In this document: positions 16,637-33,140 of the stretch, piece by piece
Layout of the letters: the number at the start of each line of letters is the position of its first letter
Numbering within the stretch: position 1 is the first letter of the stretch
NCBI GenBank assembly: GCA_903822545.1
Contig: CAIJPN010000094.1
Location: 1-33,499 of the forward strand
Source of the DNA: an uncultured Anaerolineae bacterium
Lineage (GTDB): Bacteria; Chloroflexota; Anaerolineae; Anaerolineales; Villigracilaceae
Reading direction: 5' to 3'
DNA: 33,499 bases
The notes under the pieces: model-generated
The model's database searches: none
What the model was told of the DNA's origin: nothing
What the model saw: the letters and a program-made list of their open reading frames with translations, nothing else
Made by a program: the position numbers and the translations under genes

Positions 16637-16745
16637 TTTACTCGAGAAAAACGGGGGAAAGAACCAACCCCATTGCAAGGATTTTGAAGTAGACTAAGGG
16701 TACTCCATAAGGAAGAAAACCTCGTTCCAGCAGCATCCTGTTATT

Positions 16746-16902
16746 TAACCCAAGTTGCTACCTTGATATGTCAAACTGCCTTTTTGCAAGGAGTTCCCTC
16801 ACCCCGGCCCTCTCCCAAAGGGAGAGGGGGGTAATTCCCTTCCCCCGCCGGGGGAAGGGCCAGGGATGAGGGCGATTGCGCCCAAGGTAGCAACTTGGGT
16901 TA
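16746..16902. repeat. Element with perfect 20-bp terminal inverted repeats
   Basis: taacccaagttgctaccttg at 16746-16765 is matched exactly by its reverse complement at 16883-16902. The 157-base unit encodes nothing. Its interior holds a separate palindromic repeat (16796-16872), which looks inserted because copies of that inner repeat elsewhere in the window lack these outer arms. The layout is that of a MITE-like, non-autonomous element; no target-site duplication is obvious. Confidence 0.75.
16796..16872. repeat. CCCTCACCCC palindromic repeat, intergenic copy
   Basis: A 77-base composite palindrome. The ends ccctcaccccggcc and ggccagggatgaggg are near-complementary. Inside are two hairpins: ctctccc/gggagag with an AAA loop, and cttccccc/gggggaag with a GCC loop. 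A same-type full-length copy sits inside menE (32315-32393) and a shorter one inside menH (30358-30399). Confidence 0.82.
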
Positions 16903-16997
16903 TTTATGACAAATGTCACGAACAGGATGTGATAAAAAACTCGCCAGGAGGGGCTGTTTTCGTTACAATAGGCTAAAGCCTGGACCAATAACTGCCT

Positions 16998-29805: not shown

Positions 29806-30618
29806 TCATCTGCCAGAGGTGAGAAATGTATCCAGGCTGTGGATGAACGCCTGCGCCTGCTCCGCGTGGATGGTGTGACCGGCGGCTGGAACAATCTCTG
29901 CCAGCGCGCCTTTAATTCTACGCTGGAATGGTTCCAACCCTGAGGCATACTTCTCATCCAGCCTACCCGCCAGCAGGAGTACCGGCAAATTAAGTTCTCC
30001 CAACCTGCCGCCGAGATATGGGACCCGCCCCGGGCTGAGTTCCGTTATCACCTTCGCCATCCACGCTGACGAGTTCTCCCGCCGGGCGGCTTTGACCCGT
30101 TCCAGCAGCTCCGGCTGCCTGTGCAGCGAGCGGAACAGCGGGATGTTGTACCACTCCTCCACAAACGCCGAAATACCATTCGCGCGGATTACCCCCGCCC
30201 AGCGGTCATCCAGCTTGCAGCGTTCGAGCCGCGCGGGTTCCGCTTCAATGCCAGGGCTGGTGGATTCCAGAATCAGCGTTTGCACCAATTCGGGGTATTT
30301 CAGGGCAAAATACAGGGCGGTGCGTCCGCCCATCGAGTAGCCCACCAGGTTTATTTTTCGTCCATCCTCTCCCCCTGGGAGAGGGGCTGGGGGTGAGGGC
30401 AAAGTGGCGGCCAAATCATCTACAAAAACATCATAACTGAGCGGTTTTTCGAGCGGGAAACCGGTATTTTCGCCATGCCCCGGTAAATCGGGCAGGATGC
30501 AGTAAAAGCGGTCTGCGAAAGCCTGGGCAACCGGCAGCCAATCGCGCCCGCGACCGAGAAATCCGTGCAGGAAGACGAGCGGGGGATGGATGGGAGAGCC
30601 GAGGGTGAGGGGGTTCAT
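29806..30618 (-). CDS. menH: MenH-like alpha/beta hydrolase (SHCHC synthase)
   Basis: Alpha/beta hydrolase of 270 residues, most likely 2-succinyl-6-hydroxy-2,4-cyclohexadiene-1-carboxylate synthase of menaquinone synthesis. VFLHGFLG (15-22) supplies the oxyanion region; GYSMGG (93-98) carries the nucleophile Ser95; Asp221 in GRLDEKY and His248 in AGHTIHAEQ complete the triad. PDLPGHG (43-49) is typical of MenH. It is separated from menE only by the DAHP synthase gene. Residues 74-87 (PSPPAPLPGGEDGR) come from a palindromic DNA repeat inserted in frame just before the nucleophile strand, where relatives usually have a short loop. The start codon itself overlaps the end of another repeat (30617-30746). 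The extra loop is near the active-site side, so activity is likely but not proven. Another alpha/beta hydrolase function is the alternative. Confidence 0.8.
   Translation of the reverse strand: MNPLTLGSPIHPPLVFLHGFLGRGRDWLPVAQAFADRFYCILPDLPGHGENTGFPLEKPLSYDVFVDDLAATLPSPPAPLPGGEDGRKINLVGYSMGGRTALYFALKYPELVQTLILESTSPGIEAEPARLERCKLDDRWAGVIRANGISAFVEEWYNIPLFRSLHRQPELLERVKAARRENSSAWMAKVITELSPGRVPYLGGRLGELNLPVLLLAGRLDEKYASGLEPFQRRIKGALAEIVPAAGHTIHAEQAQAFIHSLDTFLTSGR
30358..30399 (-). repeat. CCCTCACCCC palindromic repeat inside menH
   Basis: On the - strand the sequence starts ccctcacccccagcccctct and continues into a hairpin (ctctcccaggggggagag-like pairing), matching the left half of the intergenic copy at 16796-16872. 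It is read in frame as menH residues 74-87. The same DNA strand and the same reading frame are used in the menE copy, so both peptides begin PSPPA. Confidence 0.78.
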
Positions 30619-31581: not shown

Positions 31582-31637
31582 AGAGAGGGGATAAAGAGAT
31601 GATGAGAAAAATCCCCTTATCTCTTTATCTCCTCTCT
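31582..31637. promoter_or_regulatory. Long hairpin overlapping the menE 3' end
   Basis: agagaggggataaagagat (31582-31600) pairs with atctctttatctcctctct (31619-31637), 18 of 19 positions, loop 18 bases. The right arm encodes the last menE residues (REEIKR and the stop). There is no T-run after the stem on the - strand, so it may be an mRNA stabiliser or attenuator between menE and aroF, or a repeat remnant, rather than a plain terminator. Confidence 0.55.
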
Positions 31638-33140
31638 AAATAGTTTTTGCACTTCACCACGCTGGATTTTGCCGGAGGCGGTCATGGGCAGGGATTCGAC
31701 GATTCGCACCTCGCGCGGGATCTTGTACCCGGCCAGTTTTTCGCGGCAAAAGGCCTGGATTTTTTCACCCGTCGCCTGTTCGCCGTTTTTGAGCGTGACC
31801 GCAGCCGCAACTTTTTGCCCCCACTGGATATCATCCACGCCGACAACGCACGCTTCCCACACGGACGGGTGCTCCAGCAGCACCCGCTCCACTTCGGCGG
31901 GATAAACATTCTCGCCGCCGGTCACGATCAAATCGGAGCGGCGGGTGACGACCCACAGATCGCCATCGGCATCGAGATAGCCCAAATCGCCGGTGTGGAG
32001 TGCCCCGTTTCGTAGGGTTTTGGCCGTGGCGTCGGGGTTTTGGTCATATTCACGCATCACCGTCGACCCGGAGACTACGATTTCGCCAATTTCGCCGGGC
32101 GGGAGCGGCTCGCCTTGCTCATTTTCGATGCGAACCGATGTAAACATCAGCGGTGAACCGGCGCAGCCGGGCTTGGCGCGAGTCTGTTCGGGGGTGCAGG
32201 TTGCCACCTGCGAGGCGGCCTCGGTCAGGCCGTAGGTCTGGGCGACGGGGAGATTCAGTTCGCGGGCTTTTTCGAGCAAGGGCAGCGGGGCGGAGGCGCC
32301 GCCGAGGAGGATCACCCTCATCCCCGGCCCTTCTCCCGGGGGGAGAAGGGAGAAAAGCCCCCTCCCCCCTCGGGGGAGGGCGGGGGGTGAGGGCTGTAGT
32401 TCCATCATCCTCTGCAACATCGTCGGCACCAGCGAAACCATTGTCACCGAATAGCTTTCAATATCATCCAGCAGCGACTCTGCGTCGAAATTGGTTTTCG
32501 ACGGCAGCACCACCGTTGTCCCGTACAGGCAGCAGCGCAGCGGAATCGCCAGCCCGCCAACGTGATACAGCGGAATGGTCAGCAGCCAGCGGTCATCGGG
32601 CAGCGTCCCCAGCCGAAAGGCGGACGCGATGGCGCTGTAAAAGTGATTGCCAAGTGTCTGGACTGCGCCTTTGGGATGCCCCGTCGTGCCGGATGTGTGG
32701 ATGATGGCGAGCGGCGCGTCCAGGTCAAAGGGGTGGGTGAGAAAACTGCCAGCGGCGGGCAATGTTTCCACAACGAGAGCACGCGCACGGGTGGAAAGTT
32801 CCGCCACCTGCGCAGATGTAGACCCATCGCCCAGTATCCACTCACAGGCGGAGCGTTCCACCTGCCAGCGCAGTTCATCCGCCTTGAGCCGCACATTGAG
32901 CGGGACAATCGTCACGCCCAACCGCATCAAGGCATGGATGAGCATCACGAAATTGGGATTGTTGGGCAAAAGCGCGGCGGCGCGCTGCCCCTCGCGTAAT
33001 CCAGCCGCCGCCAGCCGCCCGGAGAGTTCATCCACCGCCGCGTTGAGTTCGGCATACGTCCAGGTATGCTCTCGCCACACCAGCGCGGGGTGCGCCGGGG
33101 ATGAGATCGAGCGGGAGCGGAGCCAGTCAAGTTGGAGCAT
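31617..33140 (-). CDS. menE: o-Succinylbenzoate-CoA ligase (MenE) with repeat-encoded insert
   Basis: ANL-superfamily acyl-CoA ligase of 507 residues, most likely o-succinylbenzoate-CoA ligase of menaquinone synthesis in the cytoplasm. The P-loop TSGTTGHPKGAV lies at 149-160; YGLTEAASQVAT around 305-316, GDLGYLDADGDLW, and GGENVYPAEVE follow; the C-terminal catalytic Lys is in MTASGKIQRGEV. Short length without extra domains fits MenE better than fatty-acyl ligases, and aroF and menH are its neighbours. Residues 250-275, between MMELQ and VILLGGASAPL, are encoded by a 79-base palindromic repeat and have no counterpart in usual family members. The insert is in a surface stretch before the strand preceding the adenine-binding loop and keeps the frame. 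The C-terminus also overlaps a hairpin. The ribosome site is weak; the start lies eight bases after the preceding restriction-enzyme-like frame. Confidence 0.87.
   Translation of the reverse strand: MLQLDWLRSRSISSPAHPALVWREHTWTYAELNAAVDELSGRLAAAGLREGQRAAALLPNNPNFVMLIHALMRLGVTIVPLNVRLKADELRWQVERSACEWILGDGSTSAQVAELSTRARALVVETLPAAGSFLTHPFDLDAPLAIIHTSGTTGHPKGAVQTLGNHFYSAIASAFRLGTLPDDRWLLTIPLYHVGGLAIPLRCCLYGTTVVLPSKTNFDAESLLDDIESYSVTMVSLVPTMLQRMMELQPSPPALPRGGRGLFSLLPPGEGPGMRVILLGGASAPLPLLEKARELNLPVAQTYGLTEAASQVATCTPEQTRAKPGCAGSPLMFTSVRIENEQGEPLPPGEIGEIVVSGSTVMREYDQNPDATAKTLRNGALHTGDLGYLDADGDLWVVTRRSDLIVTGGENVYPAEVERVLLEHPSVWEACVVGVDDIQWGQKVAAAVTLKNGEQATGEKIQAFCREKLAGYKIPREVRIVESLPMTASGKIQRGEVQKLFREEIKR
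32315..32393 (-). repeat. CCCTCACCCC palindromic repeat inside menE
   Basis: A 79-base composite palindrome like the intergenic copy at 16796-16872: outer ends ccctca/tgaggg, with two internal hairpins (ttctccc/gggagaa and cctcccc/ggggagg). Its limits coincide with menE codons 250-275. It contains no stop in the frame used and adds 26 residues starting PSPPALPRGG. Confidence 0.85.

What the first reader, a model, noticed from the sequence alone, without database searches (positions are those of the whole stretch)
32315..32393. Palindromic DNA repeat inserted in frame inside menE
The repeat limits match menE codons 250-275 exactly. It adds a Gly/Pro/Arg-rich peptide between two conserved parts of the ligase (MMELQ and VILLGGASAP) without a stop or frameshift. 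The same DNA element occurs between genes at 16796-16872. This is like the Rickettsia palindromic elements that create new peptides inside host proteins, but with an unrelated sequence.
Basis: partly seen in the sequence, partly recalled or inferred. Interest (0 to 1): 0.78.

Follow-up and report, generated by a model that had tools for sequence, protein, structure and literature searches.

The report
BoxC-type DNA repeat inside menE
A short self-folding DNA repeat, of a kind known from gaps between genes in E. coli, sits inside the reading frame of a vitamin K2 biosynthesis gene and of many other genes of this bacterium, and related repeats flank a family of endonuclease genes that may move them.

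Summary
In detail: a 79-nt palindromic repeat (32315-32393) lies in frame in menE. It is an inverted pair of the G/C-rich triplex-type repeat known as BoxC, PIT or TM, reported as strictly intergenic in E. coli (PMC4666352). This genome has at least 103 such pairs. Of 74 outside one MITE family, 26 lie in frame in Pfam-supported genes (22 with support on both sides), including menD, alaS, uvrA, cofE and cofD. The nearest sibling of the menE copy (77 of 79 bases) is in menD. Nine MenE orthologues lack the insert, but a native loop of 11-12 residues is replaced. No target duplication was found, and no copy at four Y1-transposase loci. The window's other copy rides in a 153-bp MITE. Late in the work a candidate mover appeared: DUF559 endonuclease genes flanked by such repeats. 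Six family genomes carry repeat-DUF559-repeat in frame at one metH site; 10 of 14 DUF559 loci in named plasmid records (three phyla) have a similar hairpin within 250 nt, against 3 of 210 control tiles. This genome's only DUF559 hit has no repeat beside it. Movement is untested.

The parts
31617..33140 (-). menE, o-succinylbenzoate-CoA ligase, 507 aa, host gene
32315..32393 (.). Inverted pair of BoxC/PIT/TM-type motifs, in frame as codons 250-275 plus one base
32315..32350 (-). First motif: 10-nt stem CCCTTCTCCC/GGGAGAAGGG, second loop CCG, third strand GGGATGAGGG
32360..32393 (+). Second motif: 9-nt stem CCCTCCCCC/GGGGGAGGG, 4-nt second loop, third strand GGGTGAGGG (one mismatched triad)
16796..16872 (.). 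Related pair of motifs between genes, inside a MITE
16796..16828 (-). Exact match to the published TMECO pattern
16748..16900 (.). 153-bp MITE, terminal inverted repeats ACCCAAGTTGCTACCTTG.., flanking TATTTA at 16742-16747 and 16901-16906
29806..30618 (-). menH, host of a single half-motif
30359..30399 (.). Single half-motif in frame in menH

Best explanation
The menE insert is one non-autonomous copy of a BoxC-type element: two G/C-rich triplex-type motifs in inverted order. It entered a length-tolerant linker between the helix ending MMELQ and the strand VILLGG, replaced about ten native residues, and stayed because the net change kept the frame and the repeat has no stop in that frame. The 26-residue Gly/Pro/Arg-rich stretch is most likely a tolerated, near-neutral loop and MenE most likely still works. 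The repeat most likely spreads through a DUF559-type endonuclease acting in a homing-like way: the nuclease cuts, and repair copies the repeat into the break, with loss of target bases and no target duplication. Shown: identity, copy number, in-frame positions, absence from orthologues, intact DNA fold in genic copies, lack of target duplication, and the association of DUF559 genes with such repeats. Inferred: that the peptide is made and harmless, that DUF559 cuts and moves the repeat, and that this genome's copies are orphans of a nuclease now lost or absent from the assembly.
For: Copies. In-frame hosts. Orthologues without insert. Clean insertion without native loss in CofE, with loss in MenE and WecB. 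Genic copies keep the fold: 457 of 465 stem pairs and 430 of 463 triads, against 807 of 827 and 737 of 823 in the others. No target duplication in 74 copies. DUF559: repeat-DUF559-repeat in 6 family genomes at one metH site; 4 of 5 places picked only for a 449-458-bp spacing of two repeats held DUF559; 0 of 30 MutS2 loci and 0 of 20 AMP-ligase loci hold it; 10 of 14 DUF559 loci in named plasmid records have a perfect pyrimidine-purine hairpin within 250 nt against 3 of 210 control tiles from six of the same records; with the model, 10 of 14 score 20 bits or more, against 1 of 6 control stretches, 180 kb.
Against: This genome has one PF04480 hit, in a long ORF without any repeat, and 0 of 73 of its repeat loci hold DUF559. 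Only 2 of 29 family loci taken one per genome hold it. The six metH composites share one site, so they may be a single ancestral event. L220, with the right spacing, has none. Flanking does not prove cutting or movement. That the peptide is translated is untested. Length divisible by 3 is only weakly commoner in genic copies (13 of 26 against 17 of 48).
Confidence: 0.5

Rival explanations
1. No dedicated enzyme: the hairpins stall replication and repair or template switching copies them to new places; neighbouring copies exchange by recombination.
For: No target duplication; nearest sibling of the menE copy lies in menD of the same pathway; Holder et al. propose replication stalling and slippage as the cause of instability at these motifs.
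Against: Does not explain DUF559 flanking or near-identical pairs in other phyla.
Confidence: 0.25
2. A Y1 (RAYT or IS200-like) transposase moves the repeat in trans, as proposed for GTAG-tagged REPs.
For: The genome holds four Y1_Tnp matches; REP-like anatomy; REPs also enter genes (PMC3733652).
Against: No copy in any of the four Y1 loci; one of the four has a stop inside; ends are CCCTCA/TGAGGG, not GTAG or CGTC.
Confidence: 0.12
3. The inserts are selected as functional peptides or as regulatory RNA or DNA structures of the host genes.
For: Fold kept in genic copies; three genes of the men pathway carry motif sequence.
Against: Hosts are unrelated, frames and peptides differ; orthologues lack the insert.
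Confidence: 0.08
4. A chance low-complexity linker, not a repeat.
For: Pro/Gly linkers occur in many proteins (general knowledge).
Against: 0 of 200 shuffles fold as well; at least 103 places; published pattern 50 matches against 0 when read backwards.
Confidence: 0.01

Closest known systems
BoxC / PIT / TM (TMECO) intrastrand-triplex repeats (Holder et al. 2015, PMC4666352)
   Same: Same motif order (C-rich stem, G-rich stem, short second loop, G-rich third strand), same inverted pairing at some sites, strict pattern present 50 times in this genome.
   Different: Reported in E. coli MG1655 as always intergenic, 23 copies, 5 inverted pairs; here nearly always paired and often in frame in genes; the menE copy has a 10-nt stem and does not meet the strict pattern.
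Hairpin repeat CCCTCTCCC..GGGAGAGGG of Enterobacter sp. 638 (PMC2869309)
   Same: Same hairpin core, one hundred copies.
   Different: Described there as often at the 3' ends of genes (passages seen only).
GTAG- and CGTC-tagged REPs inside genes (Di Nocera et al. 2013, PMC3733652)
   Same: Palindromic repeats and dimers in frame in many genes, often 20-30 residues, uvrA among the hosts.
   Different: No GTAG or CGTC end tag; no linked Y1 transposase.
Rickettsia palindromic elements (RPE)
   Same: Multicopy palindromes in frame inside genes (as cited).
   Different: Different phylum and ends; direct sequence comparison not made.
MITEs
   Same: One subset travels inside a 153-bp MITE.
   Different: The pair itself has no target duplication.
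Homing-endonuclease elements
   Same: Nuclease gene in frame in a host gene, flanked by its repeats, no target duplication.
   Different: No intron or intein sought or found; nuclease is DUF559, not a classical homing family (naming from Pfam and general knowledge); cutting not shown.

Membership tests
TMECO (strict published pattern) | CCCTCNCCCN3-6GGGNGAGGGN3GGGNGAGGG | tested here: not met
   Not in the menE copy; met once in the window by the half at 16796-16828, 50 times in the genome, 0 in the reversed control; in 9 of 74 non-MITE copies and 0 of 26 genic copies
G/C-rich class II intrastrand-triplex motif (wide class: stem 6-15 nt, loops 1-6 nt, at most one mismatch) | C-rich stem, loop, G-rich stem, loop, G-rich third strand matching the stem | tested here: met
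   Both halves of the menE copy: stems 10 and 9 nt, loops 3 and 3-4 nt, 0 and 1 mismatched triads (rule as read)
G/C-rich class II intrastrand-triplex motif | Forms a triplex | not testable with these tools
   Third strand follows its own stem at triad 7 in 120 of 128 halves and 90 of 93 from other genomes, but not at triad 4; two founder modules could explain this
BoxC as described in E. coli | Intergenic position | tested here: not met
   menE copy and 25 others lie in Pfam-supported genes
GTAG/CGTC REP | GTAG or CGTC tag at one end | tested here: not met
   Ends CCCTCA/TGAGGG in the aligned copies
GTAG REP with RAYT | RAYT gene flanked by the repeat | tested here: not met
   0 of 4 Y1_Tnp loci hold a copy
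MITE (menE copy) | Target-site duplication | tested here: not met
   No excess of matching flanks for lengths 2-10 in 74 copies
MITE (16748-16900) | Terminal inverted repeats and target duplication | tested here: met
   7 copies with both ends parsed, 152-153 bp, 6-7-bp duplication perfect in 6 of 7 and one mismatch in the seventh
Rickettsia RPE | Sequence relation to RPE families | not tested
   No RPE sequence was compared
DUF559-linked repeat element | DUF559 gene flanked by the repeat | tested here: inconclusive
   Met in 6 family genomes and several other taxa; not met in this genome

The most novel reading that the evidence does not exclude
BoxC/PIT repeats are the mobile ends and orphan copies of a homing-like element whose enzyme is a DUF559 endonuclease. 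The autonomous form, repeat-DUF559-repeat, sits in frame in host genes such as metH; the repeat alone spreads by nuclease-cut and repair across phyla and, in Anaerolineales, enters core enzymes such as MenE as ready-made loops.
Probability: 0.4. Interest if true: 0.85.

Novelty: new variant of a known kind. Interest (0 to 1): 0.7.

Why it matters
Holder et al. describe BoxC/PIT repeats as known since the 1990s with no assigned function, and in E. coli only between genes. Here they sit in frame in dozens of genes of one genome, and DUF559 endonuclease genes are flanked by repeats of the same anatomy in several phyla. If DUF559 moves them, an old orphan repeat gains an enzyme, and the question of how it spreads and enters proteins becomes directly testable.

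Tried and rejected
Y1 transposase linkage: none at 4 loci. DUF559 as mover: first set aside because this genome has one PF04480 hit without a repeat, then taken up again after Pfam showed DUF559 beside the repeat in two family genes. Target duplication: none; an outward base preference (C in 78 and G in 6 of 148 ends, then G/A, then A) is unexplained. Length divisible by 3: 13 of 26 genic against 17 of 48 others, too weak to use. Frame-breaking copies: neighbouring ORFs were listed but not tested, so no rate of gene disruption is given. Phages: no match for the 77-nt copy in 50,697 records. Rfam: no match in the window. Pfam: none for the insert peptide alone. Print: ten text searches of the held open library showed no report, in the listings I saw, of BoxC/PIT repeats inside genes; none of the ten asked about DUF559, so whether its link to repeats is in print was not searched.

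Full report
What is there. The window is contig C94 of a 5.53-Mb, 237-contig genome. A held family member (G031) shows the same copy coordinates and scores as a genome reached through a record titled Anaerolineales bacterium S25.Bin185, so the organism most likely belongs to the Anaerolineales, Chloroflexota (lineage). menE lies at 31617-33140 on the - strand. The repeat at 32315-32393 has an outer stem and two inner hairpins; 0 of 200 shuffles fold as well on either strand. It spells codons 250-275 plus one base without a stop.

Copies. BLAST with the two window copies and a covariance model from 31 copies give 103 distinct places: 29 near-identical places of one MITE and 74 others. These are lower bounds, since one search scored 150 of 2358 first-look candidates. 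At least one of the 74 (C41:87480) has diverged MITE flanks. Three hairpin pairs show changes on both sides, in 11, 5 and 3 of 31 sequences.

In genes. 37 of the 74 lie in an ORF with at least 40 codons on both sides. Pfam was asked about 34 of the 37; three (L050, L127, L129) were not tested. Six had no family (L036, L037, L048, L054, L055, L109); L046 and L056 were dropped because their family lies on one side near a gene end. 26 remain: menE, menD, an ADP-forming acyl-CoA ligase-type protein, cofE, a WecB-type epimerase, a P-type ATPase, thyX, L097 and L101 (radical SAM), L100 (FAD/FeS), a BadF/BcrA-type activase, uvrA, two Eco57I-type methylases, alaS, a PPDK_N protein, a TrmA-type methyltransferase, a sulfotransferase, a FAD-linked oxidase, an MrfA-type helicase, glnE, a glycosyltransferase, a GH2 protein, an FtsJ-type methyltransferase, cofD and a GH94 protein. 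In 22 of the 26 the family spans the repeat or matches on both sides; in L038, L092, L096 and L103 it matches above its cut-off on one side only. Gene names rest on family matches and on reading the sequence, not on tests of function. The peptides differ with frame and strand.

How clean? Against solved relatives, CofE has 30 residues where the relative has 2, that is the 27-residue element and no native loss; UvrA shows gaps summing to 25 residues at the element; WecB has 41 residues against 19; MenD shows gaps of only about 9 residues, so the element stands where the relative has a linker. In MenE, 28 residues stand where 8 of 9 family orthologues have 11-12; the ninth, L075, has a longer unrelated insertion. 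A family MutS2 (L182) has the element in a hypervariable linker where congeners at 85-86% identity carry other residues.

Siblings. The copy closest to the menE copy is in menD (77 of 79 bases; next best 89%), in the same frame. menH carries a single half-motif. menD and menB lie at the end of contig C173, and menE near the end of C94; whether the contigs adjoin is unknown.

Known kind. A text search for the hairpin core led to Holder et al. 2015 (PMC4666352; I saw the abstract, passages, and sections 15, 16 and 18 with the first parts of sections 3 and 20). They study the repeat earlier called BoxC and PIT as a G/C-rich class II intrastrand-triplex motif, TMECO: 23 in E. coli MG1655, always intergenic, 5 inverted pairs, 3610 in 262 proteobacterial genomes, linked to local genome instability; triplex formation in vitro, not supported by footprinting in vivo. 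Their pattern matches this genome 50 times and 0 times read backwards; many of the 50 are the MITE copy. The menE copy fails the strict pattern but meets the wider rule. I file it in the wide class, not as TMECO. Of other papers, PMC3733652 was seen as abstract, passages and one section, PMC2869309 and PMC2267715 as passages, the rest as search listings.

Third strand. 133 of 148 halves could be parsed. At triad 7 stem and third strand agree in 120 of 128 halves with A or G on both sides (shuffle mean 77, maximum 92 of 2000). In 93 halves from other genomes they agree in 90 (mean 53, maximum 72; halves with fewer than 6 rule-conforming triads were dropped there, which favours agreement). Against a triplex reading: at triad 4 the third strand is always A while the stem is A in 69 and G in 64, and two founder modules could give the same picture. 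Genic copies keep stems and triads as well as the others.

Spread. 27 of 201 genomes across the phylum match at 1e-8. Of 6 genomes reached through loci, 4 match: the family member, a Burkholderiales MAG, a Gallionellaceae MAG and, with weaker scores, Pseudomonas resinovorans; 2 Corynebacterium do not. The Gallionellaceae copy is 88.6% identical to the menE copy. The Burkholderiales copy lies in frame between FeS and cysteine-rich domains of a FAD-oxidase-type protein. In plasmid records 335 hold a related stretch, 8 of them over 80% of the query; 4211 of 5426 E. coli genomes hold a half-length match.

A candidate mover. Two family genes with the repeat proved to be methionine-synthase-type proteins that also contain DUF559 (PF04480), with a repeat on each side, all in frame. 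Listings and 65 showed other repeat pairs 449-458 bp apart. I fetched five such places and fifteen others: four of the five held DUF559 between the repeats (L216-L219), L220 did not, and none of the fifteen did. All six composites lie at the same metH site by their flanking residues, so they may be one ancestral event. DUF559 also lies beside model matches in the Gallionellaceae MAG (L178, repeats on both sides, in an ORF that I would call ygiQ from memory) and in P. resinovorans (L175, the DUF559 ORF ends in the repeat). None of 30 MutS2 and 20 AMP-ligase control loci, none of 73 repeat loci of this genome and 2 of 29 family loci taken one per genome hold it. As an independent test I searched plasmid records by DUF559 protein only (31 records), took 14 of the 31 and looked for repeats: 10 of 14 score 20 bits or more with the model, most of them weak or lineage-specific variants; by a model-free rule 10 of 14 have a perfect pyrimidine-purine hairpin within 250 nt. 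Controls are six 30-kb stretches of six of these records: 3 of 210 tiles by the same rule and matches above 20 bits in one of six stretches. The two tests miss different loci; E. coli (L238) fails both, though a weaker model match of 18.3 bits lies about 180 nt away.

Movement. No target duplication was found, native residues are often lost, and one subset travels in a MITE with 6-7-bp duplications. Loss of target bases without duplication fits cutting and repair better than a transposase; this is inference. In this genome the only PF04480 match lies in a long ORF with no repeat, so its copies would be orphans.

Limits. No congener is held. Translation, activity, exposure of the loop and any cutting are untested. 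The DUF559 work came late: its literature was not searched, and 14 of 31 loci were chosen by me for variety.

Noticed in passing
window 16748-16900; loci L001-L029: A 153-bp MITE with 6-7-bp AT-rich target duplication carries the repeat pair as passenger; about 29 near-identical copies, many at contig ends, so it breaks the assembly.
   Followed up: partly
L134, L137, L216-L219: repeat-DUF559-repeat composite in frame at one methionine synthase site in six genera of the family.
   Followed up: partly
L236-L249: DUF559 genes of Azospirillum, Sphingomonas, Sinorhizobium, cyanobacteria and Deinococcus lie beside lineage-specific palindromic hairpins of the same anatomy.
   Followed up: partly
L203 region: G000 C203:22324 and 24740: Neighbouring cofE and cofD both carry an in-frame copy, as menE and menD do.
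   Followed up: no
ends of the 74 copies: Bases just outside the TGAGGG ends are not random: C in 78 and G in 6 of 148 at the first position, then G or A, then A.
   Followed up: no
L164, G000 C4:5090-5287: A RAYT-like Y1 gene (my reading) with one internal TAA and an insert-like stretch RVCPG..GEHAGSPQ.
   Followed up: no
L212, L213: In Enterobacter hormaechei and Leptolyngbya records the related repeat begins 1-2 bases after the end of the upstream gene.
   Followed up: no
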